Shown one piece after another: positions 15,289-63,033 of a DNA stretch of 64,000 nucleotides. The notes under the pieces are model-generated. The model did no database searches and had not been told where the DNA came from. It worked only from the letters and a program-made list of their open reading frames with translations. Each line of letters begins with the position of its first letter. The first letter of the stretch is position 1. This stretch comes from Stratiolaelaps scimitus (Eukaryota > Arthropoda > Arachnida > Mesostigmata > Laelapidae): the NCBI GenBank assembly GCA_019614645.1, contig JABWDB010000065.1, positions 372,001-436,000 on the forward strand, in the 5' to 3' direction. The translations under genes and the position numbers were made by a program.

Positions 15289-15895
15289 TTAAGGGACAAT
15301 CAAAGCAGGAGGTGACGAACGTATTTTATAGTGTGAACGATGTAATCTCCGTCCAGAGGTGGGACGCCATGTATTCAAAGCTGAACCTTTCAATAGACGG
15401 CCAGTCAAATACGTAGGACTTGGGGCTGCCAAGGGACGGCGTACACTTTTCCACTCTTCATCGTACCGCGCATTTAGTCTATGGATCACACCCAGCATAG
15501 GCTTCGGACTTCTGTTCCTTACTGATATGATATGGTCCTCGTGTCTTTCCCGAACTATAGAGATAGAGAATATGCACACCCAAGCAGCACACTTTGCTTA
15601 TAGCGTAGATAGCAATTGCAGATATGTTGAATGCTTGCCCGTTCTGGAGAAGGATGTCTCTAGGACAATGAACGAAAGGCCTGGTCGCAAGTCCTTGTGC
15701 TCTCATAGCTTTGACAGGATTGAGAGGACGGCCCTCTCCTCAGAGATCAAACGGTGATTCGAGAAATTGCTGTGTTTCCTTCGACACATCCAGCTTTTTT
15801 TTTTTACATTCGAGCTGTTCCAACAGTAGTATCTGTACGATGAACAACAATCTGCTAAGCACTGGATTGAGTTTCATGATGGGTAACTGGACCGA
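15289..15895 (-). pseudogene. Decayed copy of the five-cysteine secreted-protein family (edge copy)
   Basis: Nucleotide and broken-frame similarity to the family is clear: conserved flank around the start, AAACGGTGATTCGAGAAATT in the TQQFLESPF region, and GLATRPFVHC, ILLQNGQAFN and HISK segments matching LATKIFALC, LILRYAQA and HRLSK of intact copies. Several frameshifts and stops split it. The upstream initiator-like sequence TCAGTTTCAATTA is kept, but the TATA region is lost because sequence diverges beyond about 15,933. It is the most diverged member and sits at the left edge of the array, in line with being the oldest or longest unconstrained copy. Confidence 0.8.
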
Positions 15896-15949
15896 TATGT
15901 CTGCTTTGATCACAATCTAATTGAAACTGAATGGGATGCCTTTTGTGGC

Positions 15950-17586
15950 ATTCACTCCCGCAATGACGCTGTAAGCCCTCACACGGCTGCAGCGACTATC
16001 TCGCAGCAGATGGGTCAACAAAGAATTTGATCCTTCGGCTTTTACCCCCAGGTCGGGGCGGACCCGGAGCGCAGCATTCCCCAGAGTGTAGCTGAAGCAC
16101 TGCTGATCGTGCTTTTGTAAAAGCCGCCCTAGATTCGGCTCGCTCATGAGTATCAATCCTATCCTCTCTCTCCGGCTCGTTTCGTCCAGCACCCCATGTG
16201 CGAAGGGCGACCGATTGAGATGGATCTGTAGGCACTTTATTACAGCTGGCGTCATCCTAATTGGCAGATTGGGTTGTCTCCGGACGGGGTTTCATGGTCT
16301 TGGAGTAGGTCCTGACGTCCTCTGAAGTCGTCGCTCTGCTTCCTTAAGCTTGATCGGTGCGTCCTTCGGTGCTCCTGTTTTCTGTGTTGCCTGTGCGGGT
16401 CTGCTTGTTGCGAGCCCTCAGGTCACTCATGCTTTGCTTGAAGAAGGGGCTCTCCACAGAGTTTGCTGCGTGGATGCGTTCACCCTGTTTCGGGAAACCA
16501 CAGTTGTAGCTCAGCCTCACACCGCACTTGTGGCACTTGACTTCTGTCACCTCCTGCACTTTGCAGTCTCGCGCGATGTGCCCTAATTTCTGGCATTTGA
16601 GACAACACGGGCAAAGAACCATTCGTTTATGGGGTATGAGGTCCACCCGATCCTGATGCAGCTCTGGGCAAGAGGTTTTTCCGCCCTTCGCCTATCAAGG
16701 ACTATGGTGCCCCCCATCTGTCCTCAGCGAAGTTCTTTGGCTCCTCCGCGTCCACCTTCTTTGATGAGTCGAGTCGCAGGTCCCTCCTAACCGCCTCCAT
16801 GATGACCTCCCTCGTTATGCCTTGGTTACGTCGTAGGATACGAAGTCTCGTACCTTGTGCGGATTCCTTGGCTTCTAGTGAGGTCTAGGCCTTGAACTCG
16901 TTCATGAATGCTGCCGTCGCGTCTCTTTGGTTCTCCTTGAAGAACAGCCTGAGGTCTCCGATCTAGAGAGGCAGGACGTTCCTGACCGAGAGCCCTGCTT
17001 TAGAGGTATCCACCTTATTTTGCAGCAGGCTTGCCCATTGGATTAGTGTCTTGTCCGCGGTGGTCCTGATGATGATAGAACCATCTTTCGTCCGGTTGGG
17101 TTCTTTGCGCCGTATTTCAGCTTCGGAGGTGGCTTTCTTCTTCGACGAGAGGTCGAGTTCTCCGCCGGCCTTCAATTGGCAATAATCGACTGCCTTCCTT
17201 GCCAGCACGGAGTCGACACCCTCTGTGACGTGCATAACTACCTTGTTTCTGCCGTCGTCAGCCTTCCAGCCCCGTCGAGCTTGCCTGCATTTTGGCTCTC
17301 ATTTTTTGGATGACATCGACGATGGACTTCACGCCCGCTTCTGCGCTGATTTTCCCCACGATGAGCGATCATCTGCTCGGAGCTGGCGAGTCTTGTTTTG
17401 GGTCTCCCCGGTTTGCGTGTCCCGTAGCTCGGAGGTCCTGGAGCAGGTCTTGAAGCTGGTTGTATCTGGCGCGTTCGTTCGCCAGCTGGTGTTTGTGTTC
17501 TTGAGCATCACAGGTTTTTTGGGCCCTGAGGTCTTCGAGCTCTGGACATTTAGGCGAAAGAATAGCTCACCATAGAGGTGAGCCAT
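15950..17586 (-). mobile_element. LINE-B copy 1 (R1-like): ORF1 and start of ORF2
   Basis: On the minus strand the ORF1 (gag-like) region runs from about 17,586. It has a coiled-coil-prone frame (ELEDLRAQK, QLANERARYNQLQ segments), a central segment containing SIIIRTTADKTLIQW and, at 16,344-16,646, CCHC zinc knuckles (CLKCQKLGHIARDC; CHKCGVRLSYNC). ORF2 starts near 16,255 (MTPAVIKCLQIHLNRS) with the N-terminal apurinic-endonuclease-like region (ILMSEPNLGRLL). It is cut off near 15,950 after about 100 codons, so no RT remains. Several frameshifts and stops interrupt ORF1. A longer copy lies at 25.6-28.4 kb. Confidence 0.8.
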
Positions 17587-17623
17587 CAGACAAAGACGAA
17601 ATCACTCCAAAGCCACGGAAACG

Positions 17624-19535: not shown

Positions 19536-19539
19536 TTGA

Positions 19540-20290: not shown

Positions 20291-21120
20291 CGTGGACAGA
20301 TGTTAATGCCTTATCTAATCATGCACATACTTGGCCGGATAAGATAGAGTAGATAATTGGAATCAGAGGTCCGCTTCCATGGTATCAAAGTAATGCCTAC
20401 CAATTTCCGAGCCTTTGGGGCTAGGGGTGCCACGAAATAAGATGGAAAGATAGACCCTATCAAGAACAAGTGACTATAGAGTATGGAAGGAGAGGACACT
20501 GAATAGCTGAAGACAGTGAAAACCTTTTTTTTACTGATTATGAGTTGTATTTAATTCTTCATTAATTTATTCAATAATATCCTAATGATTATCATTCTTA
20601 ATTGATTCTGCTACCGGAAATAACCAGGGAGATTGAGACACCTGGCTCACCTTAAGGAGAGAACGGATCAATGTATATCACTCAAGGCCCAGCTGCAACA
20701 CCATGAGGATCACTTGCCATTTTACAGCCCCGATGGCCACCCAAGGAGACTAATAATCCTATGCATGAGAGGAGCATTAAAACTATTCTATTTAAGGGAA
20801 ACCGTCTAGGAAAAGTGCAGAGGGCAATCCAAGCAACAACCGAGCAAGGAACGTCTCACATTGCACGTTGAGACCAATAACTCACACACTGCACGTTAGA
20901 AACGTTGGAAGGCAAACGTCAAACAGCTGATCCAAACGATGAGCGTGAAACCAAAATGTAACAATATGTGTGCTAGTACACTGAGGCCATAATCCCGATA
21001 TTAGTGGATGCCTACGTATCCTACGTAAGCAAGATGTATTGCAAATGCAATACACCTTGCTTACGTAGGAAATAGTAACTCTAGTCACAATAGTCGCTTA
21101 CGTGCAAATAGTCAGAGCCA
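20291..21120. repeat. Array block D, copy 1
   Basis: A block of about 0.8 kb lying 3' of the gene in every unit (also near 23.3, 30.5, 36.45, 39.2, 50.9, 56.9 and 61.2 kb). It starts with TTATCTAATCATGCACATAC and includes a plus-strand short frame, HLKERTDQCISLKAQLQ (about 20,640-20,800), conserved in part among copies. In the 23 and 39 kb copies its left end is continuous, on the minus strand, with LINE-E endonuclease (STLSDH), so at least that edge is LINE-derived. Confidence 0.65.
21020..21069. repeat. Near-perfect 24-bp foldback with 2-base loop
   Basis: Left arm 21,020-21,043 (CCTACGTAAGCAAGATGTAT plus TGCA) pairs with right arm 21,046-21,069 with one mismatch; the loop is AA. Other array units have a single uninverted TACGTAAGCGGGGTGTATTG here followed by about 350 bases that are missing in this unit. 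The foldback therefore sits on a deletion junction. Confidence 0.85.
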
Positions 21121-21121
21121 T

Positions 21122-21252: not shown

Positions 21253-21867
21253 TCAAAGCAGGAGGTAACGGACGTGTTTTATACTGTGTATGAGGTAATC
21301 TCCGTCCAGAGGTGGGCCGGCATTGGTCGAGCGCAAGACGCAATGAACCGTTCCCACGGCGAGTCTTTCAGTTAACGACCAGTCAAATTCGCAGTACTTA
21401 CCGCTGGTAAGGAGCACGACAAACAACTTGCCACCATTTTTCATAGAGCGCAATATCATTTGGAGAAGATAGAGTAGGGGTTCGGGTTTTTGGCTTTTAC
21501 TGAGTCTGTGTGGAGATGCGGTGTTTTCTGAAAAGTAGCCGTAGACGAAATGCACAACGATGCACATGAGTTTGGTGAAAGGGTAGATCGCTTCTGCTGG
21601 TAGGTTCATTGCTTGCGCGTACCGGAGAACGAGGTCTTTACCGCAAAGAGCAAAAATCTTCGTTGCAAGAGCGTGTGCTTTCACAGCTTCAACGGGGTTG
21701 AGAAGGCGACTTTCTCCGCAGAGATCAAACGGCGATTCGAGAAATTGCTGTGTACGCTTCGACACAATTGGCTTTTTGTTCTTACATTCGACATGTTCTA
21801 ACAATAGTAGTTGTGTAATGAACAACAAAGTGGTTAGCACTTGCACGAGTCTCACTATAAGCATCAT
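21253..21867 (-). CDS. Unrecognised secreted protein, five-cysteine array family (subfamily I)
   Basis: A single uninterrupted frame of 204 residues. The start is one of two adjacent ATGs at 21,867/21,864, chosen because a strong signal peptide follows: hydrophobic core around residues 4-23, cleavage plausible near residues 24-28. The frame is open further upstream (to 21,927) but that would bury the signal. The mature part is basic near its N-terminus (CKNKKP), then TQQFLESPF, CGESRLLNPVEAVKAHA, LATKIFALCGKD, MCIVVHFVYGYFSEN, SMKNGGKLF and GPPLDGDYLIHSI. Family cysteines lie at 28, 50, 75, 102 and 176; this copy has an extra one at 159. No intron is needed. By eye it differs from the 37.4 kb copy at 12 of 204 positions. 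Function unknown; secretion is inferred. Confidence 0.8.
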   Translation of the reverse strand: MMLIVRLVQVLTTLLFITQLLLLEHVECKNKKPIVSKRTQQFLESPFDLCGESRLLNPVEAVKAHALATKIFALCGKDLVLRYAQAMNLPAEAIYPFTKLMCIVVHFVYGYFSENTASPHRLSKSQKPEPLLYLLQMILRSMKNGGKLFVVLLTSGKYCEFDWSLTERLAVGTVHCVLRSTNAGPPLDGDYLIHSIKHVRYLLL

Positions 21868-21945: not shown

Positions 21946-22128
21946 GGCCCCATAAGTTATTCCACGGATGATTCACCAATTCTTATGCAACAGATGGGTC
22001 AATACATGTGTCCCAAAGAGACAACTGAGCAAACATCTTCACTAATGACTTGATAATGAAATTTTACTTGACAGCCTTCTACCTGTCGACCATAAAAATA
22101 TTATCTCATTAAAGAATGATCTGTATTT

Positions 22129-22563
22129 GACGGCCTCACCCTTATCCCCTTCCATCGAGGCCAGCACCTGGTTTGGGACGGCACTGTGGTTGACACTCTA
22201 GCACCTTCTTATGTCAACCACTGTGCAACCATCCCCGGTTACGCAGTGGCGCGTGCGGAGCGGGCAAAGCTGAGGAAGTACGCCGCACTCCAAGCAACGC
22301 ACCTGTTTTCCCCCCTTGCCTTTGAGACCTTGGGCGGGCACGGCCCTCTCACTGCGAACTTCCTCGAGGGGGTCTACCATAGGTTGATCCGCGCCACCGG
22401 GGACAAGCGCGCTGGCTCTTTCCTCCTGCAGCGCCTGTCCCTCGCTGTGCAGAGAGACAATGTCATCGCCTTCCTCGGGACATTGTCGTCCTCACCCCCC
22501 CCCCCCCACCCCCATAATCCCTAGAAATTCCGAACTACTGTATGTTTGAACAAAGATATATAT
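22129..22563 (+). mobile_element. LINE-R 3' fragment with target-site duplication
   Basis: A 435-bp insertion bounded by TCTGTATTT on both sides (22,120-22,128 and 22,564-22,572). The paralogous unit at 38.28-38.30 kb has the uninterrupted empty site. The insert begins inside the endonuclease region (equivalent to 48,310) and runs through the C-terminus, the poly-C tract encoding PPPPHPHNP and the short 3' UTR. This copy keeps the C-terminal frame open (22,186-22,524), unlike the 48 kb copy. Extreme 5' truncation and a short duplication are hallmarks of LINE target-primed insertion. Confidence 0.9.
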
Positions 22564-22572
22564 TCTGTATTT

Positions 22573-24318: not shown

Positions 24319-24888
24319 TTAAAGCAGGAGGTAACGGACGTGTTTTACAGTGTGTATGAAATAATCTCCGTCCAGAGGTAGGCTCCCATTGGCCGAGTGC
24401 AGGACGCATTGAGGCGCTTCCCGGTCGAGTCCTTCAATAAACGAACAGTCAGGTTCGTAAGATTTGCCGCTGGCAATTGGCACAACAAACAACTTACCAC
24501 CATTTTTCATAGAGCGCAGTAGCATTTGGAGAAGGTACATTATGGGTCCGCGTTTTTGGCCTTTACTGATTCTGTGCGGATTTGCTGTGTTTTCTGAGAA
24601 GTAGCCGTAGAGAAAATGCACAACCATGCACATGGCTTTGCTTAGAGAGTAAATCGCTTCTGCAGGTACGTTGAATGCTTGCGCGTACCGGAGAATGCGG
24701 TCTTTACTGCAAAGAGCAAAAGCCTTCGTTGCATGGGCGAGTGCTTTCACAACTTCAACGGGGTTGAGGAGACGGCTCTCTCCGCAGGGATTAAACGGCG
24801 ATTCGAGAAATTGCTGTGTACGCTTCGGTACAATTGGCTTTTTGTTCTTGCATCCGACGTATTCCAACAGTAGTAGTTGTATAATGAA
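24319..24888 (-). pseudogene. Five-cysteine family copy lacking start codon and half of the signal peptide (subfamily III)
   Basis: The frame is open from LLFIIQLLLL to the normal stop, matching residues 14-204 of intact copies. The segment that should hold the ATG, the first 13 residues and the 5' leader is deleted: AACAACAAAGCAT is joined directly to AGGAATATAATTG, a leader sequence. The deletion keeps frame with upstream codons, but no in-frame ATG precedes the signal core, and the nearest ATG is out of frame. Five cysteines are kept. It shares AFNVPAEAIY, the CMVVHF core and LPLDGDYFIH with the 41 kb copy, defining a third subfamily. A non-ATG start cannot be excluded. Confidence 0.75.
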
Positions 24889-24894
24889 CAACAA

Positions 24895-25235
24895 AGCATA
24901 GGAATATAATTGTAACTGAGTGGGATGCAGTTCTGAAGAAGTTGGCTATAATAATGGTCCAATAAATTATTCCACAAACGATTTCAATAATTTTTACGCA
25001 ACAGATGGGTCAATACAGCTGTCTCAAAGAGAAAACTGGGCAAGTATCTTCACTAATGATTTGCTAACGAAATCTTACTTGATCACCTGTTCGACCATAA
25101 AAGTATCTCAACAAAAGCTAAATATTGTTTTCATATTATTATGTGGCTTAAGAAGAACAATAATTAGTGACGTGGTGGGGGACAGGCTGTCAGGCCGAGG
25201 CCGGCATGGTCATCCCTGAGGGAAGGCATGGCATT
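24895..25235 (-). repeat. Upstream flank and LINE-R-like 3' remnant of the 24.3 kb unit
   Basis: Carries the initiator-like TCAGT (24,915-24,919, minus), the flank ending in the AACAGATGGGTCAATACA block, and the LINE-R-like 3' remnant (25,120-25,235) seen upstream of other copies. Confidence 0.55.
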
Positions 25236-25600: not shown

Positions 25601-27040
25601 GGTCTTGGGGTACTTAGGGCAAGAAGGAGTGAATTAGCTCGGGGGCAAGATCTTATGTTTAGGGGTCTATTTGGACATCGAGTCCCTTCGCGAGCTGTCA
25701 CGAGGATAGCTAGATCATCCGCGTAAGCCAGCGTTTGGACTCCCTCTGCTCTGACGAACTCCAAGACGTCGGTGTACGCGATGTTCCTGAGTGTGGGCCC
25801 AAGGATAGAACCCTGGGGCACTCCGGCTGTCATGGAAAACTCGGATTCGCCGTAGGTAACGGACCGTCCGTTGAGGTAGAAAGCGATGAGCTTCTGCACG
25901 TACGGGGAGACTCTCTTCTATCGCATGACGTCGGTGATGACCTGCCAGCTCAGTGGGTTGAAGGCATTGTGTACGTCGAGGAGTATGACGAGAACAAACT
26001 GTCTTGACCATTGATTCCTGTCGCGTCGCCGGAAGGCTTCGTCGAGTACATTCTCAATGGCCATTTCCGTCGACCGTCGCTTCCGGAAGCCGTACTGGGC
26101 GTCTGAGATCGCTCCGTTGGCTTCAAGCTCCGCCGTTAGCCTCACGTTAACGATCGTCTCGGGGGCTTTCCCGATCGTGTCTAGGAGACAGATGGGGCGG
26201 TATCCTCCAGGATCGGTAGCCGATTTCCCGGGCTTCCTGATGAGGGCTAAGATGGCCTTCTTCAATTGTTGCGGGTATAGCCCCTCTCTCCATACTTGAT
26301 CCGCCATCCTCTGGAAGAATTCCGGCTTCTCCTGAAGCAGAACTTTCACTGCTTCCGCCGGTATTTCATCGGCGCCTGGCGCTTACAATGACACAATGCT
26401 TAAGCTGGGTAGTGTGTTTCCGCTGACCGCCTATGGTTGATTCGTACTCGTACGCGATGTAGGCGTGGTCGCTAGAAGAGTCCTCGTCCAGAACCCGCCA
26501 GTTGCTCAGTCTTCCGGTCACGTCCTCGGTTCCGAACGTGAGGTCCATGAATGTAGCTTGGTTGCACCGCCGGAACATAGGCTCGAGACCATCACTGAAG
26601 AGGGCCATGTTCTGTTGTGCCAGCCATTCCATCAGGATTCTTCCTCTTGAGGACGTCGTAGAGCTTTTTCCGTTTCTCACATCGTGTTATTTCTTCTCCT
26701 AGATCGTCGAGAAGATTGGACAAAGCTGTGGCGCCTGAGTTGGGCGAGATATAGCAACTGAACACAGTGGGACCGTTGTCAATCTCCATCCAAAAACAGC
26801 CGTCCCCTGATTTTTGGGCTTTTACCCCCAGGTCGGGGCGGACCCGGAGCGCAGCATTCACCAGAGTGTCGCTAAAGCACTGCTGATCTTGCTTCTGTAA
26901 AAGCCGCCCTAGATTCGGCTCGCTCATGAGTATCAATCCTATCCTCTCTCTCTCCGGCTCGTTTCGTCCAGCACCCCATGTACGAAGGGCGACCGATTGA
27001 GATGGATCTGTAGGCACTTGATTACAACTGGCGTCATCCT
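25585..27040 (-). mobile_element. LINE-B copy 2, ORF2: endonuclease and reverse transcriptase
   Basis: On the minus strand ORF2 starts near 27,035 with KCLQIHLNRS and ILMSEPNLGRLL. A CT-dinucleotide insertion near 26,950 shifts frame. The endonuclease middle and end (CYISPNSG; ATFMDLTFGT; SSDHAYIAYE, 26,366-26,900) follow. RT fingers and palm run from 26,349: LIRKPGKSATDPGGYRPICLLD, then ILLDVHNAFNPLSW (motif A), AGVPQGSILGP (B) and LAYADDLAILVTA (C, about 25,700). It stops after motif C, so thumb and C-terminal zinc finger are missing. At least two frameshifts break it. Motif order and the endonuclease type place it with R1/LOA-like elements. Confidence 0.85.
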
Positions 27041-31728: not shown

Positions 31729-32343
31729 TCAAAGCAGGAGGTAACGGACGTGATTTATCAAGTGTATGAGGTAATCTCCGTCCAGAGGTGGGCCGCCGTT
31801 GGTCGAGCGCATGATACAATGACTCGTTTCCAGGGCGAGCCCTTCAACAAACGGCCAGTCAAACTCGTAGGACTTGTCGCTGGAAAGGGGCACGGCAAAC
31901 AGCTTACCACCAATTTTCATAGAGCGCACTGTCATTTGGAGAATATGAACTAGGGGTCCGGGTTTTTGGCTTTTACTGAGTCTGTGTGGAGATGCGGTGT
32001 TTTCTGAGGAGTAGCCGTAGACAAAATGCACAACGATGCACATGAGTTTGGTGAAAGGGTAGAGCGCTTCTGCTGGTAGGTTCATTGCTTGCGCATACCG
32101 GAGAATGAGGTCTTTACCACAAAGAGCAAAGACCTTCGTTGCAAACGCATGTGCTTTCACAGCTTCAACGGGGTTGAGAAGCCGGCTCTCCCCGCAGGCA
32201 TTAAATGGCGATTCGAGAAATTGCTGTGTACGCTTCGACACAATTGGCTTTTTTCTCTTACATTCGACACATTCCAACAGCAGTAGTTGTGTAATGGACA
32301 ACAGAGTGGTTAGCACTTGAACGAGTCTCATTACGAGCATCAT
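31729..32343 (-). CDS. Unrecognised secreted protein, five-cysteine array family (subfamily II)
   Basis: Intact 204-residue frame starting at one of two adjacent ATGs (32,343). An in-frame ATG at 32,436 would add 31 residues, but it lies upstream of the TATA and initiator motifs, so the shorter start is preferred. The signal peptide core is VLTTLLSITQLLLL. Family cysteines are at 28, 50, 75, 102 and 176, plus one at 25 (LECVEC) typical of this subfamily. Subfamily marks are RSMKIGGKLFAVPL and DYLIHLINH. It differs from the 62.4 kb copy at about 15 positions. No intron and no known domain. Expression is plausible given the promoter but not shown. Confidence 0.8.
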   Translation of the reverse strand: MMLVMRLVQVLTTLLSITQLLLLECVECKRKKPIVSKRTQQFLESPFNACGESRLLNPVEAVKAHAFATKVFALCGKDLILRYAQAMNLPAEALYPFTKLMCIVVHFVYGYSSENTASPHRLSKSQKPGPLVHILQMTVRSMKIGGKLFAVPLSSDKSYEFDWPFVEGLALETSHCIMRSTNGGPPLDGDYLIHLINHVRYLLL

Positions 32344-32381
32344 GACCGGTATGTGCCTGCTTTTATCAGAATATAATTGTA

Positions 32382-32420
32382 ACTGAGTGGGATGCGGTTT
32401 AGAAGAAGTCGGTTTTATAA
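32382..32420 (-). promoter_or_regulatory. TATA box and TCAGT initiator of the 31.7 kb gene
   Basis: Minus-strand TTATAAAA (TATAAA at 32,419-32,414) lies 35 bases upstream of the A of TCAGT (32,386-32,382), a match to the arthropod initiator. That start would give a 5' leader of about 41 bases before the ATG. The pair is kept at the same spacing in the 52 kb copy with a changed initiator (TTAGT). Confidence 0.55.
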
Positions 32421-32436
32421 TATCCCCATAGGTCAT

Positions 32437-32964
32437 TGCACAGACGGCTGCAACAATTCTTGCGTAACAGATGGGTCAACACACCTGTCTCACAGAGAGA
32501 ATTGAGCAAATATTTTCACTAACGATATTTTACTTCATAACCTGTTCGACCATAAAAATATTATCTACCTGCTAAAACCATTCTTTGCTGAAAGTCAATC
32601 CCTTTCCTAGATTCAGCACGCTTGGCATTACTTCGATCTCTAGGGAAGGTGTATAACAGCTCCGGCTAGTGTTCTACCTTCGGGATTCCCTCACCGGTGG
32701 TGTCCGTTTAAGCCTCCCCTTCTGTGAATGAGTCGGCCACACTACGTCTCTGGTGTGCGTGATAACCAACTCTCCTCTATGGAAGTCATGAGACCGCCGC
32801 TTGTTAGCTCAGCGTGGACTGACTGATTTCTTTATACTTGCCATTATGTCGTCTGCATGTGTTACACGAGATACGACACTGTGGTACCTACCATCATCAA
32901 CATCTGCCTTTCTTTACAAGGTTTCAATACAATGCTCTATTTAATTATGATTATTATTATTATT
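32437..32964 (-). mobile_element. LINE-E remnants upstream of the 31.7 kb gene
   Basis: The common upstream flank ends near 32,566 and joins LINE-E linker sequence (ACCTGCTAAAACCATTCTTT). Further up, a minus-strand frame gives THADDIMASIKKSVS (about 32,855-32,820), an RT motif C relic. The LINE-R-like 3' remnant present in other units is missing here. Confidence 0.5.
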
Positions 32965-37170: not shown

Positions 37171-37186
37171 GTGGATGCCTACGTAT

Positions 37187-37236
37187 CCTACGTAATCAAG
37201 ATGTATTGCAAATGCAATACACCTTGCTTACGGAGG
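37187..37236. repeat. 24-bp foldback, second copy
   Basis: Same foldback as at 21,020-21,069 with extra mismatches in the arms (CGTAATCAAG against CTTGCTTACG; CGGAGG end). It confirms that the structure arose before the duplication of this unit and is now decaying. Confidence 0.8.
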
Positions 37237-37418
37237 AAATGTCACTCAAGTCACACTAGTCGCTTACGTGCAAATAGTCACAGCCATTTTAATGTCCGAT
37301 TTGTCCTAATAGTTGTTGACTTTGCTTCGTTTGTCGTGTTGAATTTACCGCAGCGTAGCAGAAGGATACACTTGCTGCCCGTGCGCATTTGATTCCAGGA
37401 TGAAGAGTCCGGGGGCAA

Positions 37419-38033
37419 TCAAAGCAGGAGGTAACGGACGTGTTTTATACTGTGTATGAGGTAATCTCCGTCCAGAGGTGGGCCTCCATTGGTCGAGCGC
37501 AAGACGCAATGAACCGTTCCCACGGCGAGTCTTTCAGTAAAGGACCAGTCAAATTCGTAGGACTTACCGCTGGTAAGGAGCACGACAAACAACTTGCCAC
37601 CATTTTTCATAGAGCGCAATATCATTTGGAGAAGATAGAGTAGGGGTTCGGGTTTTTGGCTTTTACTGAGTCTGTGCGGAGCTGCGGTGTTTTCTGAAAA
37701 GTAGCCGTAGACAAAATGCACAACGATGCACATGAGTTTGGTGAAAGGGTAGATCGCTTCTGCTGGCACGTTGGCTGCTTGCGCGTATCGGAGAATGAGG
37801 TCTTTACCGCAAAGAGCAAAAATCTTCGTTGCAAGAGCGTGTGCTTTCACAGCTTCAACGGGGTTGAGAAGGCGACTTTCTCCGCAGGGATTAAACGGCG
37901 ATTCGAGAAATTGCTGTGTACGCTTCGACACAATTGGCTTCTTGTTCTTACATTCGACATGTTCCAACAATAGTAGTTGTGTAATGAACACCAAAGTGGT
38001 TAGCACTTGCACGAGTCTCACTACAAGCATCAT
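37419..38033 (-). CDS. Unrecognised secreted protein, five-cysteine array family (subfamily I/III mosaic)
   Basis: Intact 204-residue frame from the paired ATGs at 38,033. The signal peptide core is VLTTLVFITQLLLL; cysteines lie only at the five family positions (28, 50, 75, 102, 176). Most of the gene matches the 21.3 kb copy, but PFNPC (GGATTAAACGG at codons 46-51) and NVPAEAIY (codons 88-95) match the 24 and 41 kb copies, suggesting a converted patch at about 37,745-37,895. The downstream ATTAAA is at 37,288-37,293. Product and role unknown. It is the cleanest representative of the family in this window. Confidence 0.8.
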   Translation of the reverse strand: MMLVVRLVQVLTTLVFITQLLLLEHVECKNKKPIVSKRTQQFLESPFNPCGESRLLNPVEAVKAHALATKIFALCGKDLILRYAQAANVPAEAIYPFTKLMCIVVHFVYGYFSENTAAPHRLSKSQKPEPLLYLLQMILRSMKNGGKLFVVLLTSGKSYEFDWSFTERLAVGTVHCVLRSTNGGPPLDGDYLIHSIKHVRYLLL

Positions 38034-38770
38034 GACCGATACGTGCCTGCTTTTATCGGAATATAATTTTAGACTCTGTGAGATGCGGTTTCGACAGACT
38101 CGGCTGTATAATGGCCCCGTAAGTTATTCCACGGATGATTCACCAATTCTTATGCAACAGATGGGTCAATACATGTGTCTCAAAGAGACAACTGAGCAAA
38201 CATCTTCACTAATGACTTGATAATGAAATTTTACTTGACCGACTTCTACCTGTCGACCATAAAAATATTATCTCATTAAAAGATGATCTGTATTTCATAT
38301 TCTTATGTGTCTTAAAATAGGGAATATTTAGTGGCGTAGTGAGAGATAGAGTGTCAGGCCGAGTCCGTAGTAATTATCCCGGGGGAGGGGATGGCATTCC
38401 CAATTTACCCAGCGAGGGAAAGGCGCTACAGAAGGAAGAACCTCAACTCCATTGTTGGTTGTTGTCCATGTCCAACACTTGAAATTGGTTATCGCTCTCG
38501 ACCCGTGATGTAATCTGTGAAAGATCGGTGGTTGATAGGCAAGATTAGTCACTTACAGTTGTACTATTTTTCGTTCTTCAAACGCGCGAACACCACCAGA
38601 GACCTTTCAATCACCATAAAAGTGGGCCGATCCAGTGCAGGGTTGACGTGGATCACAAAACGCCTCTACCTGCTAAAATCATCTTCTGCTGAGAATATAT
38701 CTCTTTCTTAGATTCCACACGCTTGGCATTATTTCGATCTCTAAGGAAGGTGTATAACTGCTGCGGGTAG
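38034..38770 (-). repeat. Upstream flank, LINE-R-like 3' remnant and LINE-E linker
   Basis: Contains the empty target site ATGATCTGTATTTCATATTC (38,283-38,302), the LINE-R-like 3' remnant (38,300-38,450) and LINE-E linker sequence (38,560-38,770). The TATA position reads TTATACAG, as in the 21 kb unit. Confidence 0.6.
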
Positions 38771-41221: not shown

Positions 41222-41841
41222 TCAAAGCAAGAAGTAACGGGCGTGTTTTACACTGTGTATGAAATAATCCCCGTCCAGAGGTAGGCCCCCATTGGTCGAG
41301 CGCAAGACGCACTGAGCCGTTCCCAGGCCGAGACTTTCAATAAACGACCAGTCAAGTTCGTAGGTCTTACCGCTGGTAAGTGGCATAAGAAATAATTTAC
41401 CACAATTTTTCATAGAGCGCAATATCGCTCGGAGAAAACTACTACGATAAACTAGGGGTCGGGGTTCTTGGCCTTTACTGAGTCTGTACAGACCTGCTGT
41501 ATTTTCTGAAAAGTAGCCGTAGCAAAAATGCACAGCCATGCACATGAGTTTGTTTAAAGGGTAGATCGCTTCTGCTGGCACGTTGAATGCTTGCGCGTAC
41601 CGGAGAACGAGGTCTTTACCGCAAAGAGCTAAAATCTTCGTTGCAAGCTCGTGTGCTTTCACAGCTTCAACGGGGTTGAGAAGGCGACCATCTACGCAGG
41701 GATTAAACGGCGATTCGAGAAATTGCTGTGTACGCTTCGGCCTCATTGGCTTTTTGTTCTTACGACATGTCCGAATAGTAGTAACTGTATAATGAGCAAC
41801 TAAGTGGTTAGCACTTGAACGGGTCTCACTACGAGCAGCAT
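41222..41841 (-). pseudogene. Five-cysteine family copy with destroyed signal peptide (subfamily III)
   Basis: The native start (ATG, 41,841) reads MLLVVRPVQVLTT and hits TAG at codon 14 (41,802-41,800). Small deletions further on put the leader out of frame with the mature part. From KNKKP to the normal stop the frame is open, so an alternative ATG at 41,860 gives a 212-codon frame whose first 32 residues are out-of-frame leader with no signal peptide. A small insertion (about 41,436-41,450) turns YLLQM into YRSSFLRA. Family cysteines persist, with extras at HFC and NCG. The product, if any, would not be secreted. Confidence 0.75.
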
Positions 41842-41861
41842 GGCCGGCATGTGCCCGCATT

Positions 41862-44360: not shown

Positions 44361-44367
44361 CCACAGC

Positions 44368-46290: not shown

Positions 46291-46667
46291 AATTACGAGA
46301 AAATGACCATGAACCGGATAGTTTACCATTACCCCGTACAATGGAAAATACCAGTTTAAGATGTGTATTTGGCAACACACGTTTCACTGGCTAAACCTGG
46401 GGCCGTCGATCCACCTTTCTCACTAGTGAAAAAGTCACTGAAACGTGGCTCACTGAAGGCGTCTCCTCTGCTGAGCTGTCGGGACGAGGAAAAGTTGAAG
46501 TGTTCCGTAAGGGTCGTACACTGGGGCTGGTGTGTTACTACTCGGTGTGTCGATACAAAATTACTTTGTATTGAAGTCAACTTTAGCGATATGTCGTCCG
46601 AAAAAACAGCCGTTGACGACACTCCGATACGTCTGGAGAAAGCGATGCATTATCTAAAGAACAATTG
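46291..46667. other. Unassigned sequence between BEL/Pao and LINE-R
   Basis: An open plus-strand frame crosses this region into LINE-R, but its N-terminal part has no similarity to LINE-R copy 1 and begins at a non-ATG codon. It is treated as flanking sequence that happens to be open. Confidence 0.4.
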
Positions 46668-48728
46668 TTGCTCCGCCGCCCTCGCTAAGGTGGTCGACTG
46701 CATGCGGGCCGGCACGGTTCCATCGGAGCTACGGCCAATACTCTTCGGCGCGCGCCTCATCGCCCTCAAGAAAAAGGATGGGTCGATAAGGCCCATCACC
46801 TGCTCCAGCACGATTCGTCGCCTGGCTGCTAAGATCGCCTGGGTCAACGAGAGGGACACGGTCGTGACCCTGCTTGGCCCAACCCAGCTGGGTTGCGGCC
46901 AGGCGTCTGGGACGGAGATCGCTGCTCACGCGGCTCGCGCCTTCATCCACGCTCATCCGGACGCGGCCCTGGTCAAGCTTGATTTTCGCAATGCCTTCAA
47001 CACGGTCCGTCGAGATCTCGTTCTGCGAGAGGTTGCTGAGCACGTCCCTGGCCTCTTCCCTCTGGTCGACCTGGCCTATCGTTGCCCCTCCCATCTGATT
47101 ATGGACAACGCCGTCATCAGCTCAGAGTGCGGGGTCCAGCAGGGGGACCCGCTGGGCCCAGCCCTCTTCTGCCTGGCCCTCCGGCCCCTCGCTGTGTCCC
47201 TCCAGTCGCGTCTGCGGCTGTGGTACATGGACGACGGAACGTTGGCAGGTGATCCGGCGACCGTCGCCTCCGACGTTCAGCGAGTACTCGACTACGAGGG
47301 GCGCAGCGGCCTTGCCCTCAACCCCACGAAGTGCGAGATCTTCTCTTTAGACGCGCAGCCCGACCTCCAGCAGTCGCTCCCAGGATGCCGTCTCACTCAG
47401 AGGTTGTCCCTCGAGCTCGTCGGCTCCCCTCTCACGGACGAGGCCATCCGGCCGCTATTGGACCGTTGCCTCGAGAGGACGGCCGTGATGCTCGACCGAC
47501 TGCCCCTGTTATCGGCTCACCAGGGGCTCTTCCTCCTTCGGTCCTGTTTCTCGGCTGCACGCATGCAGCACTTGCTTAGGACATGCCCGGCCGGCACTGA
47601 GGCTTCAGCCCTTCACGTGTATGACGATTTGGTGTTGGACGCCCTGACGACGATCCTGAACCTCCAGTTCCCTCCGGAAGCGGCGTCGCAGGCTACCCTT
47701 CCAGTCCGCTTCGGCGGCCTCGGCATCCTCAGTGTACGCCGCTTGGCTGACGTTTGCTACGCCGCGTCGCTTACGGCGGTTGCCGACATGGTCGCTACAG
47801 TCTTCCCCCCCGAAGCGCTCGCCCACTTCTCCGCTTCCCAGGAAGCTGCCCTTGACCAGACGGGCGTCCGCGCTCGGGTCCCTCCGGACAAACAGAGCAA
47901 GCAGCGGGCATGGTCCGATGCCCTGCACTAGGAGCTGCGGGACTCCCTCCTGGCCTCTGCGCCACACGTTTCTGACCAAGCTCGCCTCCGGGCTGTCGAC
48001 AGGCTTGGTGCGGGGGCGTGCCTCCACGCGCTGCCCTCCTCGTCCCTTGGTACTGCTCTAGACGATCGCTCCCTCCGCTTCTGTGTGGGCCTTCGCCTCA
48101 GGGCCCCTGTAGTTGCGGCCCACAGCTGCGAGCGTTGCGGGGAGCCCGTCGCAACGAATGGCCATCACGGTCTCTCGTGCGAACGCAGCGCCGGTCGCCA
48201 TCCGCGTCACACGATGCTTAATGACACGCTCGTGAGGGCCCTCCACCCGGCCGGTATTCCTTGCACAAGGGAGCCACAGGGCCTCGACACCTCTGACGGG
48301 CGCCGCCCTGACGGCCTCACCCTTATCCCCTTCCATCGAGGCCAGCACCTGGTTTGGGACGGCACTGTGGTTGACACTCTAGCACCTTCTTATGTCAACC
48401 ACTGTGCAACCATCCCCGGTTACGCAGTAGCGCGTGCGGAACGGGCAAAGCTAAGGAAGTACGCCGCACTCCAAGCAACCCACCTGTTTTCCCCCTTGCC
48501 TTTGAGACCTTGGGCGGGCACGGCCCTCTCACTGCGAACTTCCTCGAGGGGGTCTACCATAGGTTGATCCGCGCCACCGGGGACAAGCGCGCTGACTCTT
48601 TCCTCCTGCAGCGCCTGTCCCTCGCTGTGCAGAGAGGCAATGCCATCGCCTTCGTCGGGACATTGTCGTCCTCACCCCCCCCCCCCACCCCCATAATCCC
48701 TAGAAATTCCGACCTACTGTATGTTTGA
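46668..48728 (+). mobile_element. LINE-R copy 2: RT, zinc finger and restriction-like endonuclease
   Basis: Longest LINE-R. RT runs from ALAKVVDCMRAG and KKKDGSIRPITCSSTIRRLA (fingers) through VKLDFRNAFNTV (motif A, about 46,975), GVQQGDPLGPALFCLAL (B, about 47,131) and WYMDDGTLAGD (C, about 47,221) to a long thumb. A TAG near 47,930 replaces an AGG present in copy 1. Beyond it, CERCGEPVATNGHHGLSC forms a zinc finger, and RRPDGLTLIPF with WDGTVVDTLAPS matches the PD...D pattern of restriction-like endonucleases in R2-type LINEs. A 1-base loss in a C run near 48,491 shifts the last 60 residues. The 3' UTR is a poly-C tract and a short tail. The 5' end is truncated, losing the N-terminal RT segment seen in copy 1. 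Confidence 0.85.
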
Positions 48729-49540
48729 ATAAATCTTGCTCCGCCTTTGATGTGAAAATGATTTCCAGCAGATAGTCGCCAGCCCGATGGGAGGACAAAA
48801 GGCGCCCGATATCCTTCGGAACAAAGACGACGCGATTGAAGATGTGACCATGCCAACCGCCCCTATTGCTGACACCGTGTGGGAATGTTGAAGGGAAGCA
48901 AGGCTCCCATCCCAACTGAATACACAGATATGCTAAAAAAAAACGAATAAAAACCAAGGATAGCTCAGAGGATAATCTCAGGATAGATAACCTCAGCTCT
49001 ATCAAGAGCTGAGCAGACGACTCAGCTGCTACCGACGACTAAGAGAAACCGAGATCCTTCGGGATATATTTGCTGAAACCTGTCCATCCGAAGCTTAACT
49101 GCAACTTAACCAACTTCTGCATCTTCCTTAGCCCCCGACTTCATCGGATCTGTGCTTGGTAAATTATGTGGATACCGCACCGAAAAATCTCGAGCGTAAT
49201 CTCCGTAACGTAGCAAATAAGGAAAGTGCTACCCCTTGCACTACCCCTCCTTGTGGACGTTCAGTCATCAAAGGCAGTGGGCCAGAGAAAGGGTCCTCCT
49301 GGATTGAGGGAGATTGGTGGCTGTTTTTAACAGCGGTTATTTCTGCCACCTTTTCCAGGAGTTCAGACAGCCCTCTCACTTAAAGCTGAGATAGACACGG
49401 GCCGGAAACAGCTGATGATGGGAGAGGTAGATGAACAACAATTCACTACCGTACTCACCTTGGCCTGCGAATACGCAGGTCCTTCATGCCAGCACAGGCG
49501 CCGTGGGCCTGTATAAACGTAAACAGGACCTATACAGGGC
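48729..49540. other. Unassigned sequence before LINE-C
   Basis: Open frames on both strands (101 codons minus at 48,700-49,005; 75 plus at 49,156-49,383) have no motif I recognise. Part of 49,380-49,540 may belong to LINE-C ORF1 or ORF2 5' sequence. Confidence 0.35.
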
Positions 49541-50925
49541 CTGCTGGAAAGTGACTCCAAAGTCTCACCGGTAACAGTGCGACTGGTGCGTGGAAAGAAC
49601 GGGTAGACGCGGTGGAAAGCGATATAGGGGCCTGCCGTACCGTATTATTATAGCCAAGCTCCGGAAACCTCTCTTTCCGAAAAGGTAGGTCCGCACATGA
49701 AAGCCTAAGGAAGGTGCTGGAACGTGCGGGCGAAGAGACTAGGAAAACACTTGAAAGCACAACTCTCGTGCTTCTTATCCGTCTGTATCTCAAAAAAGCC
49801 TTCAATACGATGAACTGGAAGGTAGTCATGGACGCGCTAGCCAGAAAAGGCATTTCACTGTATCTTCGTCGTATGATTTCGTGCCATTTGTATGAAAGAT
49901 GGCTGTTGGCGGAAGAGTTGAAATACAGGGTTTCGGCCGGAGTTCCGCAAGACTCAACCCTAAGACCTTTGCTCTGTAATCTCGCCTTTGACAAAGTACT
50001 CCAGATCGAAGGCATGTCGGAGGGAGTGAGGACGCTTGCATACGCCGACGATTTCGCAGGCATCATGACTGCCAGAAAGAAAGTGCTCTACTGGATGCAG
50101 CCAATGAAGCCTAGTCGAGAGTGTCAGGGTGGATGAATGATCCCTACTTAAACCTTTCGCCGGCCAAATCGAAGGTCTTGTATCTTACAGGCAGAACGAG
50201 GACGAGCGGAATCCACATTGTAATGGAAGACCACAGGTACAATTTAATAAAACGGTAAAATATCTTGGAGTGGTTCTCGACACTTGTTTAGACGGACGGA
50301 TCACATCAAAAAGGCAATCATGAAGGCCCAAGAGGTTACTGTCATCAGTAATACCGTGGGTGGGCGGACCGTCAGAGGAAAAGAACATGCTTCTTGGTTC
50401 CGTTGCTGAATCCATGGCCTTTTGTACACAACACCGGACCGGGTAAACACGGCCCTGCGGGCGAAGAACAGAAATGCACTGAGGTCGGGCCAGCGGACGC
50501 TGGCGATAAGAGGTAGCCGGGCACACCGCACGATATCGACGGAAGAGCTTCTTGTTCAAGTACGAATGCTAAAGTGACCTTCAAGGTAGAGAGGGGGGAA
50601 GCCACTGTCAACTCTTGCGATAATGAATGGGCGCAGCAGACAGCACCTAGAAGGACGACTAAGGGACGCTGTACAAGAGATCTGATACCGGATTTCCGAT
50701 TGTGGTACAACTGTCAACACACCAGGAGATCTTATTCCATGACTCAACTCCTGATTGGACACGGCAAACTGATCAAGGCGGTGGTAGACTACATAATGAC
50801 TTAGGCGGAGGCATGGACGGAGTTACGACTTGGTTCGACGAGATCGTGACACTCAATACTGACAAGGAAACGACGAGAAGGGCAGATTGGGCTATAATGT
50901 ATGGAAGGAGAGGACCATGAATAGC
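49540..50925 (+). mobile_element. LINE-C copy 3 (R1-like), longest RT palm
   Basis: Starts in the linker (SPVTVRLVRGKNG), loses the fingers, then a 140-codon frame (49,714-50,136) has VLERAGEETRKTLE, LIRLYLKKAFNTMNWKVV (motif A with the catalytic aspartate changed), SAGVPQDSTLRPLL (B) and LAYADDFAGIMTARKKV (C, about 50,037). Thumb fragments (TVKYLGVVLDTCL-like) follow, then AVVDYIMT and the TTWFDEIVTLNTDKETTRRA tail. The C-terminal zinc motif is deleted. Replacement of the motif A aspartate and several frameshifts make it inactive. Confidence 0.8.
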
Positions 50926-52009: not shown

Positions 52010-52624
52010 TCAAAGCAGGAGGCAACGGACGTGTTTTACAGTGTGTATGAGGTAATCTCCGTCCAGTGGTGGGCCGCCGTTGGTCGAGTGCAAGATACAA
52101 TGACTTGTTCCCAGGGCGAACCTTTCAATAAACTACCAGGCAAACTCGTAGGACTTACCGCTGGCAAGAGGCACGGCAAACAACTTACCGCCATTTTTCA
52201 TAGAGCGCAATATCATTTGGAGAAGATAGACTAGGGGTCCGGGTTTTTGGTTTTTACCCAGTCTGTGCGGAGCTGCGGTGTCTTCTGCAAAGTAGCCGTA
52301 GACAAAATGCACAACGATGCACGCGAGTTTGGTGAAAGGGTAAAGAGCTTCTGCTGGTAGGTTCATTTCTTGCGCGTATCGGAGAATGAGGTCTTTACCG
52401 CAAAGAGCAAAAGCCTTCGTTGCAAACGCATGTGCTTTCACAGCTTCAACGGGATTGAGAAGACGGCTCTCCCCGCAGGCATTAAATGGCGATTCGAGAA
52501 ATTGCTGTGTACGCTTCGACACAACTAGCTTTTTGTTCTTACATTCGACACATTCCAACAGCAGTAGTTGTGTAATGAACAACAGAGTGGTTAGCACTTG
52601 AACAAGTCTCACTACGAACAGCAT
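52010..52624 (-). pseudogene. Five-cysteine family copy with a single nonsense codon (subfamily II)
   Basis: Starts at ATG 52,624 with a normal signal peptide (LFVVRLVQVLTTLLFITQ). It is in frame for all 615 bases to the usual TGA (52,010-52,012), except that codon 164 (52,135-52,133), Ser in other copies, is TAG. The truncated product of 163 residues would keep cysteines 28, 50, 75 and 102 (plus 25) but lose cysteine 176 and the conserved GPPLDGDYLIH segment. With everything else intact, this lesion looks recent, or the short form could still be made. Tyr 201 is also Cys. Confidence 0.8.
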
Positions 52625-55335: not shown

Positions 55336-55344
55336 CAGTGATGT

Positions 55345-56875: not shown

Positions 56876-56899
56876 TCCACGGGAGATCAAGTTGTGGAC

Positions 56900-58560: not shown

Positions 58561-58569
58561 AGCACATCT

Positions 58570-59760
58570 TTATTATGTATGGGATAGATGCTGGGATACT
58601 CAGTCAATGCGCACAATCTCGTCACACCACGTTACTTGCGTATGCAGATGATTTAGCTGTTCTTATTAAGACCAAATCGGATCCAGAACTGCAAATAGAA
58701 GCCGATGAAACTATGGAGAAAATACACGAATGGATGACGGGCAATGGATTAGGGGTTGGCCCGCAGAAGGGAGAAGTAATTTTACTAATTGGAAGAAAGA
58801 AAGGGGGAAATATCTGGCTCAGGTACAACGGATCCGCAATAGAAGTTAAAGCCAAGGCAAGAAACTTAGAATGCATTCTTGACAAAGGAATACGCAGTCA
58901 GGCTCATCTTGATCATGTCCTGGCCAAGGCAAAAAGGGCGGCAAACAGCCTGGTTAGAACAATGCCAAACCTGAGTGGCCCATCCAGGATAGCGCGAAGG
59001 ATTAATAGCAACATCTGTGAGTACTCAATGGCAACAGTTGTGAGTACTCAATAGCTACATTTGTGAGTCCTGTTTGGTTCACTAAATCGATAACCACCAA
59101 AAAAGGAATCCAACGATCGAATAACGATCAGGGCAGCTAGACCCTATCGCACGATCTCGACTGAAGCGGGCATGCTCCTTGGAGATACTATCGCCTGGAG
59201 AATTAAAATAGCCGAACGAAGAGAAAGGTGGAGGGATTCCACGAGGTCTCCCAGAGAGGCGTGGGAATGGTCATAATGAATGAGTGGCAAAGGCACTGAG
59301 CAGGGGGCTCAGGAGCTGGGGATCATGTCCGTGAACTAATACTGGATGTTAGACTCTGGACTGATAGACCAGCTGGGAGGGTACTTACAGAACATGGGGG
59401 TGTATTTTTTGTGTGTTTCGACTCCTACCTCCTCGGATTTAGAAGTCGAAACACAGATGTGTGTGCGCAGTGCGCAAGAAGGGAGGTGGACAGACTGGAA
59501 CATACTATCTTTGTATGCCCGGCCTGGGCAAATCAAAGACGAGCTGCACTGGCAACTGCTCAGGGCTTTCAAGAGCTAATCAAAAACATGATTATTTACA
59601 AGAATCTATGGACCGACGCCTCAGAAAGCATCCGACAAATACTAATAAAAAAGAGGGAGACAGAGAGGAGATCGCAGAAAGCCAGAAGATAGGAAGGATT
59701 AAGAGAATCTGAAGACAAGGAAAACTCCACATTATATATGTAGCATCTTAGATTGTAAGA
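58570..59760 (+). mobile_element. LINE-A copy 4 (R1-like), RT motif C to C-terminus
   Basis: A 159-codon frame (58,575-59,054) starts with a segment before motif C (AGILSQCAQSRHTT), then LLAYADDLAVLIKTKSDPEL (motif C intact), thumb and connection, up to the 21-bp triplication (59,004-59,067), where the frame breaks. The C-terminal zinc region (VCAQCARREVDRLEHTIFVC) is at 59,460-59,520, with a basic tail to 59,692. Confidence 0.8.
59004..59067. repeat. Three tandem 21-22-bp units in LINE-A
   Basis: Same imperfect triplication as at 29,334-29,397. Confidence 0.8.
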
Positions 59761-61135: not shown

Positions 61136-61179
61136 CGGTGACTTTCGATTCACACGGGCGCTCCGGTTCTGGACGGGCG

Positions 61180-61870
61180 TTGATGTCTTATCTAATCATG
61201 CACATACGTGGTCGCGTAAAGTAGAGTAGATAATTGGGATGAGAGGTCCGCTTCCATGGTATCAAAGTAATGCCTACCAATTTCAAAGCCTTTGGGGCTG
61301 GGGGGTGCCACGAAATAAGATGGAAAGGTAGATCCTATCAAGAACAAGTGACTATAGAGTATGGAAGGAGAGGACACTGAATAGCTGAAGACAGTGAAAA
61401 CCCGTTTTACTGATTATGAGTTGTCTTCAATTCTTCATTAATTTATTCAATAATATCCTAATCATTACAGGAAATAACCAGGACGATTGAGACACATGGC
61501 TCACCTTAAGGAGAGAACGGATCGGTGTATATCACTCAAGGCCCAGCTGCAACACCATGAGGACCACTTACCGTTTTACAGCCCCGATGGCCACCAGAGG
61601 AAACTAATAATCCTATGCATGAGAAGAGCATTAAAACCACTCCACAACTCTATTGAAGGAAAACCATCTAGGAGTGTAAAGGGCAATCCAAGCAATAACC
61701 GAGCAAGGAACGTAGCACATTACACGTTGAGACCAATAACATACACACACCGCAAGTTAGAAACCTTGAAAGGCGAAACGCCAAACAGCTGGTCCAAACG
61801 ATGAACGTGATACCAAAATGTAACAAGACGTGTGCTAGTACACTGAGGCCATAATCCCGATGTTAGTGGA
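61180..61870. repeat. Array block D, copy 7
   Basis: Most complete block D. The plus-strand short frame is open from an ATG at 61,496 to 61,804 (102 codons; HLKERTDRCISLKAQLQHHE, HLPFYSPDGH, then a basic tail). The frame is shorter or broken in other copies, so its coding status is doubtful. Confidence 0.6.
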
Positions 61871-62412
61871 TCTCGCCCTGAAAGGAATATATCTATACAA
61901 CTATCAAACTTCATATTATTGCTAGTCACTACGTCCCTTCCCTGTGTTCATGGTATCAATACCATCGCATAGGATTTTACATGAAAATACTGCATTGTTC
62001 GTTCAGAACAAAAATAACTACTTCAGTCATAGCCGCTACCAAAGGATAAATGTCTTCTTGCTAGCGCCTTTCGGGCTCGATAATGACGAAATGGGCTAAA
62101 AAGTAATTTCCACAAATGCTTAATTTAGAACACTGATACAAATTCCTACGTAAGCGGGGTGTATTGCAAAGAATAAAAGCATACCATTAATCTCCATTTA
62201 GCCTAAACGGTATTTTATCAATAAATGAATGTAGTATTAAACACTATAGCATTAGAAGCACATAGTTCACTGATAATCACAGCCATTTTAATGTCCGATT
62301 AATCTTAATGGTTCTTGACTTGGCTTCGTTTGTCGTGTTGAATTTACCGCAGCGTAGGAAAACGATACACTTGCTGCCCGTGGCCCATTTGATTCCGGGA
62401 TGGAGAGTCCAG
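61871..62412. repeat. 3' flank of the 62.4 kb gene
   Basis: Conserved array flank, with ATTAAA at 62,287-62,292 (minus), about 125 bases from the stop. Confidence 0.55.
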
Positions 62413-63033
62413 CTACAATCGAAGCAGGAGGTAACGGACGTGATTTACCAAGTGTATGAGGTAATCTCCGTCCAGAGGTGGGCCGCCGTTCGTCGAGCGC
62501 ATGATACAATGACTCGCTCCCAGGGCGAGCCCTTCAATAAACGGCCAGTCAAACTCGTAGGACTTGCCGCTGGAAAGGGGCACGGCAAACAGCTTACCAC
62601 CAATTTTCATAGAGCGCACTGTCATTTGGAGAAGATGAACTAGGGGTCCGGGTTTTTGGCTTTTACTGAGTATGTGTGGAGATGCGGTGTTCTCTGAAAA
62701 GTAGCCGTAGACAAAATGCACAACGATGCACATGAGTTTGGTGAGAGGGTAGAGGGCTTCTGCTGGTAGGTTCATTGCTTGCGCATACCGGAGAGTGAGG
62801 TCTTTACCACAAAGAGCAAAGACCTTCGTTGCAAGCGCATGTGCTTTCACAGCTTCAACGGGGTTGAGAAGCCGGCTCTCCCCGCAGGCATTAAATGGCG
62901 ATTCGAGAAATTGCTGTGTACGCTTCGACACAATTGGCTTTTTGCTCTTACACTCGACACATTCCAACAGCAGTAGTTGTGTAATGAACAACAGAGTTGT
63001 TAGCACTTGAACGAGTCTCACTACGAGCAGCAT
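62413..63033 (-). CDS. Unrecognised secreted protein, five-cysteine array family (subfamily II, stop-loss)
   Basis: Open frame of 206 residues from a single ATG at 63,033. The usual TGA (62,421-62,419) is CGA, adding Arg-Leu before a TAG. The signal peptide is LLVVRLVQVLTTLLFITQ plus a leucine run; cysteines lie at 25, 28, 50, 75, 102 and 176. It is close to the 31.7 kb copy (about 15 differences by eye) and lacks that copy's Ser at position 112 in YGYF. The promoter has ATTATAAAG, but its initiator is altered (ACAGAG). It appears intact and expressible; function unknown. Confidence 0.8.
   Translation of the reverse strand: MLLVVRLVQVLTTLLFITQLLLLECVECKSKKPIVSKRTQQFLESPFNACGESRLLNPVEAVKAHALATKVFALCGKDLTLRYAQAMNLPAEALYPLTKLMCIVVHFVYGYFSENTASPHILSKSQKPGPLVHLLQMTVRSMKIGGKLFAVPLSSGKSYEFDWPFIEGLALGASHCIMRSTNGGPPLDGDYLIHLVNHVRYLLLRL

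What the first reader, a model, noticed from the sequence alone, without database searches (positions are those of the whole stretch)
15289..63033. Tandem family of intronless secreted five-cysteine proteins that I cannot assign
Eight minus-strand copies of one 615-base gene span about 48 kb. Four are open (21,253-21,867; 31,729-32,343; 37,419-38,033; 62,413-63,033). Each predicts a signal peptide and a mature protein with conserved cysteines at 28, 50, 75, 102 and 176 and conserved blocks (TQQFLESPF, CGESRLLNPVEAVKAHA, GPPLDGDYLIH). I know no family with this pattern. Tandem, fast-diverging, secreted and single-exon suggests an effector, salivary, reproductive or immune role, which is inference only.
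Basis: partly seen in the sequence, partly recalled or inferred. Interest (0 to 1): 0.88.

Follow-up and report, generated by a model that had tools for sequence, protein, structure and literature searches.

The report
Unassigned tandem secreted-protein gene family
A row of eight related genes with uninterrupted coding frames (four still readable) encodes small, probably secreted proteins that match no family in the libraries searched; it looks like a fast-turnover, lineage-restricted family whose job is not yet known.

Summary
Eight same-strand relatives of one 615-base gene lie between 15.3 and 63.0 kb. Four are open (c21, c31, c37, c62) and four are broken. Two further array units appear to have lost the gene altogether. 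The copies are tandem segmental duplications with shared flanks and old retrotransposon pieces. The proteins have a signal-peptide-like start. Cys28 most likely sits at the last residue before cleavage, so the mature protein would have four conserved cysteines, not five. Selection is detectable but weak: the omega grid peaks near 0.6, and omega = 1 is rejected with 2ΔlnL 5.9. Array substitutions avoid columns shared by two outside homologues (Fisher p = 0.002), but broken copies show a similar bias. Those two proteins (51-52% identical, unnamed source) are the only relatives that three protein-database searches returned (capped). Pfam, NCBIfam, PHROGs and PDB sequence searches gave no credible match. 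Two AlphaFold models are poor (mean pLDDT 51.5, 47.5), both mostly helical. Best reading: a lineage-restricted secreted family under birth-and-death evolution. A salivary, venom, reproductive or immune role remains inference. The organism, its genome and arthropod databases could not be searched here.

The parts
15290..15880 (-). c15: most diverged copy, broken by stops and frame changes
   Evidence: tblastn 44.9% over 167 aa and 43% over 53 aa in another frame; translations with stops shown
21253..21867 (-). c21: open 204-aa copy, protein 94% identical to c37
24319..24896 (-). c24: frame open from inside the signal peptide, but the start codon and about 57 bases are deleted (24896|24898)
31729..32343 (-). 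c31: open 204-aa copy; mosaic, its 5' flank c52-like and its coding part c62-like
37419..38033 (-). c37: open 204-aa copy, the reference
41222..41860 (-). c41: mature part open, signal-peptide region broken
52010..52624 (-). c52: full length with one in-frame TAG
62413..63033 (-). c62: open 206-aa copy, stop displaced two codons
57470..57520 (-). gene-less unit: 3' flank and 5' flank meet at 57484|57498; relative to c37 about 1 kb (37037-38033) including the gene is missing, one edge at the start codon
39154..39642 (-). second gene-less unit: 3'-flank sequence meets upstream-flank sequence at 39457|39458; by position it looks like the counterpart of the c24 unit (inference)
38073..38111 (-). 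putative core promoter of c37: TATA-like motif starting 78 bases before the ATG and the initiator-like place 45 bases before it (here CAGAGT). In the five copies measured the TATA-like motif starts 77-78 bases before the ATG. CTCAGT (arthropod initiator type, recalled) stands at that place in c31, c41 and c24 (a TCAGT also in c15), CAGAGT in c21, c37 and c62, CTTAGT in c52
   Evidence: resemblance to a consensus only
37288..37293 (-). ATTAAA, poly(A)-signal-like hexamer, 126 bases after the c37 stop; at 121-127 bases in six of the seven copies scanned (absent in c24; c15 not scanned)

Best explanation
This is a tandem, birth-and-death array of a lineage-restricted secreted protein gene in an animal, probably an arthropod. 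Each unit is a compact gene with no introns in its coding sequence. It makes a precursor whose N-terminal signal peptide is removed near residue 28. The product is a basic protein of about 20 kDa, mostly helical, that can form two disulfides from Cys50, 75, 102 and 176. A conserved N-terminal block (39-78) and C-terminal block (181-204) form the constrained part, and the middle (113-180) varies. Unequal crossing-over and gene conversion copy, fuse and delete units, so several slightly different functional copies coexist with dead ones. I think the protein acts outside the cell as a gland or body-fluid product that binds a partner. SHOWN: copies, open frames, shared flanks, a mosaic copy, units without the gene, weak average purifying selection, outside homologues. 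INFERRED: secretion, disulfides, fold class, expression, partner binding, the recombination mechanism and the arthropod source.
For: Eight same-strand copies; seven of them lie in homologous blocks of 1.5 to 3.9 kb shared with at least one other copy, c15 in blocks of at most 0.8 kb. Two outside homologues over 98% of the length at 51-52% identity, E 1e-57 and 6e-53, with the same five cysteines and hydrophobic starts. Identity of c37 to these two by block: 39-78 63 of 80 cells, 181-204 34 of 46, 113-180 47 of 132. ML omega grid peaks near 0.6; omega = 1 gives 2ΔlnL 5.9 for the four open copies and 8.9 with c52 added over the first 163 codons (p 0.015 and 0.003 by chi-square). Columns variable among the open copies: 15 of 108 where the two outside proteins agree, 29 of 89 where they differ, p = 0.002. 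In the four open copies the signal-peptide hydropathy peak is 1.7-2.0 (19-residue windows starting at 4-8), mature pI 9.4-9.6, no N-glycosylation sequon. Mosaic c31 and gene-less units.
Against: No transcript, peptide or expression evidence. Half of the copies are broken, and raw identity of the frames is about that of the near 3' flanks. Pairs with the broken c41 give dN/dS 0.67-1.14, and the open pair c31-c62 gives 0.82. The broken c24 and c41 show the same column bias as the open copies (private changes 24 of 192 against 43 of 154 cells), so that bias does not prove present-day constraint. A stretch around residues 91-112 is mildly hydrophobic (mean 1.2-1.3), which leaves membrane association open. 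Fold confidence is low.
Confidence: 0.7

Rival explanations
1. The array is largely a decaying relic: a once useful secreted gene whose local copies are now near-neutral, the four open frames being the ones that have not yet been hit.
For: Four of eight copies broken and two units without the gene. Coding divergence about equals that of the near 3' flank. dN/dS 0.82 for c31-c62. Broken c24 and c41 show the same column bias as the open copies.
Against: omega = 1 rejected for the open copies (2ΔlnL 5.9, and 8.9 with c52). In the two close pairs the coding part differs less than the longer 3' flank (22 of 615 in both, against 74 of 1339 and 58 of 1235).
Confidence: 0.2
2. The gene is cargo or an accessory gene of a mobile or viral element, and the copies arose by transposition.
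For: Intronless coding sequence, many copies, reverse-transcriptase fragments nearby. A 292-base direct repeat (79%) stands on both sides of c37 (36491-36778 and 39156-39435).
Against: All copies have the same orientation and seven share flanks with other copies on both sides. The direct repeat around c37 is explained as the 3' flanks of two successive units. Inverted repeats of 14 bases or more around c37 and c62 are short, chance-like and not at matching places (only these two copies examined). The RT frames found inside the shared flanks (49714-50136, 58575-59054) are fragments on the opposite strand. No relative in the viral contigs scanned, in PHROGs or by fold (none at E 0.001 or better, on a poor model).
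Confidence: 0.05
3. A known arthropod secreted family that the libraries here fail to recognise because they hold few arthropod proteins.
For: No arthropod proteome, nr or AlphaFold DB could be searched. Pfam covers only curated families.
Against: Of eight members scanned against Pfam at E 10, one had a single weak hit (zf-RING_13, E 0.14). Ten exact peptide strings from the family occur in none of the 5.39 million papers held, though sequences are seldom printed in full text.
Confidence: 0.3

Closest known systems
P0001 and P0002, unnamed proteins from public assembled reads (source 'lgn')
   Same: Homologous over 98% of the length, same five cysteines, same N- and C-terminal blocks
   Different: 51-52% identity. 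P0002 has a 40-residue C-terminal extension. Organism, context and function unknown
Tandem multigene secreted families of arthropods (for example tick salivary families; general knowledge, plus search listings with abstract starts)
   Same: Signal-peptide-like start, small cysteine-bearing protein, tandem duplication with pseudogenes
   Different: No profile match to any Pfam family. Coding sequence without introns and mostly helical low-confidence prediction, unlike Kunitz or lipocalin folds (recalled)
Spidroin N-terminal domain (7oom_B)

Membership tests
Tandem birth-and-death secreted gene family (general kind) | Same-strand copies in shared duplicated flanks | tested here: met
   eight copies on one strand; blocks of 1.5-3.9 kb for seven of eight
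Tandem birth-and-death secreted gene family (general kind) | Intact and dead copies side by side, with deletion and recombination between copies | tested here: met
   four open, four broken, two gene-less units, c31 mosaic
Tandem birth-and-death secreted gene family (general kind) | N-terminal signal peptide | tested here: inconclusive
   hydropathy and -3,-1 rule fit; no dedicated predictor or experiment
Tandem birth-and-death secreted gene family (general kind) | Gland- or tissue-specific expression | not testable with these tools
   no RNA-seq
Any Pfam-A family (Kunitz, lipocalin, cystatin and others) | Profile match to a curated family | tested here: not met
   0 of 3 proteins at E 10; among 8 alignment members one weak hit, E 0.14
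Processed retrogene copies | Each copy bounded at transcript ends, with a poly(A) tract at the 3' end | tested here: not met
   homology runs past the transcript in seven of eight copies. The only run of 11 or more A or T in the window is a T run at 15795-15805, which reads as A on the gene strand but lies inside the coding part of c15, not at its 3' end. c15 itself is too diverged to tell
Spidroin N-terminal domain | Five-helix fold (recalled) | tested here: inconclusive

The most novel reading that the evidence does not exclude
A previously undescribed family of secreted, mostly helical four-cysteine proteins with its own fold, restricted to one animal lineage and used as an extracellular effector, with a fixed pair of terminal blocks presenting a variable centre.
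Probability: 0.3. Interest if true: 0.55.

Novelty: new member of a known kind. Interest (0 to 1): 0.36.

Why it matters
Lineage-restricted secreted families often carry host, mate or microbe interactions, and are often left unannotated because they match nothing (general knowledge). This one gives a clear signature (FLESPF..CGESRLLNPVEAVKAHA, PLDGDY..H..KHVR) for finding relatives. Its array, with open, broken, mosaic and gene-less units in 48 kb, is a tidy record of gene birth and death. The kind of system is ordinary; only the protein is unassigned.

Full report
OBSERVATION. A tblastn of the 37.4 kb protein against the window gives nine matches at eight places, all on the minus strand, and a DNA repeat search gives the same eight. 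Four are open from a shared ATG: c21, c31, c37 and c62. The other four are broken: c15 by several stops and frame changes, c24 by loss of its start region, c41 in its signal-peptide region, c52 by one TAG. Protein identity to c37 is 94, 83 and 84% for the open copies, 76% for both c24 and c41, and 51-52% for two outside proteins.

ARRAY ANATOMY. Self-comparison shows that the copies lie in duplicated segments: c21 and c37 share 3.9 kb at 94.3% plus a further 0.9 kb at 93.4%; c31 and c62 share 2.1 kb at 93.1%; c52 and c62 2.1 kb at 80.6%; c24 and c52 1.6 kb at 77.9%; c41 and c62 1.5 kb at 77.4%. c15 aligns only over its gene and close surroundings (at most 0.8 kb, 67-70%). Two places retain flank sequence from both sides without the gene, with junctions at 57484|57498 and 39457|39458. 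The first ends at the base before the start codon, which I take as coincidence. c31 is a mosaic: its 5' flank differs from that of c52 at 13 of 223 sites but from that of c62 at 39 of 223, while its coding part differs from c62 at 22 of 615 and from c52 at 59 of 615 (by bins). Unequal crossing-over or gene conversion would explain this. The window ends just after c62, so the array may continue.

SURROUNDINGS. Besides the seven family frames, one search lists 28 frames of 120 aa or more; 17 of these were scanned with Pfam. RVT_1 matches 46363-47931, 25918-26349, 49714-50136, 58575-59054 and 13062-13652, the last three below the curated cut-off. Two weak hits below cut-off (DUF2063 E 0.024, Fe_dep_repress E 0.015) I read as chance. 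The RT pieces look like R1-like and other non-LTR elements (recalled, not tested). No tRNA or Rfam match. I saw no other host gene among these 17; 11 frames were not scanned. The arthropod source is inference from such elements and from the promoter style.

GENE STRUCTURE. In the five copies measured, a TATA-like motif starts 77-78 bases before the ATG and an initiator-like place lies 44-45 bases before it. It reads CTCAGT in c31 (and, from the alignment, in c41 and c24, with TCAGT in c15), CAGAGT in c21, c37 and c62, and CTTAGT in c52. c41 and c24 have deviating TATA-like words; c15 was not examined there. ATTAAA lies 121-127 bases after the stop in six of seven copies scanned. These are resemblances to a consensus only. 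The frame above the ATG closes 36, 45, 31, 45 and 10 codons upstream in c21, c31, c37, c62 and c52, so the shared ATG is the likely start. Introns in untranslated parts cannot be excluded.

PROTEIN. The N-terminus is hydrophobic, ending VEC|K in the open copies. V or I at -3 and C at -1 suits signal peptidase (rule recalled), so Cys28 is probably lost and the mature protein keeps Cys50, 75, 102 and 176. With that cleavage the four open copies give 19.7-19.9 kDa, pI 9.4-9.6, without N-glycosylation sequons. A stretch around 91-112 is mildly hydrophobic (mean 1.2-1.3). Both AlphaFold models are mostly helical with a small hairpin, but mean pLDDT is 51.5 and 47.5, so only the helical class is worth quoting.

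SELECTION. Pairwise dN/dS is 0.32-0.51 between the c21/c37 and c31/c62 pairs, 0.49 and 0.82 within them, 0.38-0.61 for c52 with the open copies, 0.49-0.68 for c24 with them, and 0.67-1.14 for c41 with them. A likelihood grid on the four open copies peaks near 0.6. The best lnL found at omega = 1 is 2.96 lower (2ΔlnL 5.9); with c52 added over the first 163 codons it is 4.47 lower. Where P0001 and P0002 agree, 15 of 108 columns vary among the open copies; where they differ, 29 of 89 (Fisher p = 0.002). Against this, frames are not clearly more conserved than their close 3' flanks by raw identity, and the broken c24 and c41 show the same column bias (24 of 192 against 43 of 154 private changes), so part of it predates the breakage. 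Long-term constraint on the family is therefore sound; present-day constraint on each local copy is weak or uncertain.

RELATIVES. Three searches of 5.8 billion predicted proteins returned only P0001 and P0002 (one search was capped at 7998 candidates, and all are limited to relatives sharing short exact words). Curated families and solved structures give nothing credible. Peptide strings of the family occur in no paper of the held library. I do not know how well these collections cover arthropods, so 'no known family' means none in what was searched. For the papers I saw only the search listings and abstract starts; none was read.

EXPLANATION AND RIVALS. The best account is a lineage-restricted secreted protein family in a birth-and-death array (0.70 for that statement as a whole). 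A decaying relic (0.2) cannot be excluded without expression data. A mobile-element cargo gene (0.05) is disfavoured by shared flanks and constant orientation; no matching inverted repeats were found around the two copies examined, and the 292-base direct repeat around c37 is explained by two successive units. A described arthropod family that the libraries miss (0.3) is compatible with the best account and would only remove novelty.

VERDICT. Observation confirmed; interpretation partly supported; five cysteines more likely four in the mature protein. The kind of locus is well known and the protein is unassigned. Interest 0.36.

Noticed in passing
22129-22563: An insert about 260 bases upstream of the c21 start codon matches 48309-48733 (97.2% over 427 bases), at the downstream end of the plus-strand reverse-transcriptase frames at 46.4-48.6 kb, and looks like a 5'-truncated copy of that element. 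It is flanked by a 9-base direct repeat (TCTGTATTT at 22120-22128 and 22564-22572); the c37 unit shows the site without the insert at 38287-38295.
   Followed up: yes
31729-34308: c31 mosaic: its far upstream region matches the c52 unit (86.4% over 1055 and 95.0% over 641 aligned bases), while coding part and 3' flank match c62.
   Followed up: partly
37140-37270 and 20970-21105 (approximate): In c21 and c37 the 3' flank beyond about 150 bases past the stop is unlike that of the other copies (c37 differs at 57 of 103 sites from c62 and 63 of 116 from c31): a replaced 3' end.
   Followed up: no
9940-10302 and 48073-48435: An inverted pair of related retroelement pieces (363 bases, 89%) 38 kb apart.
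   Followed up: no
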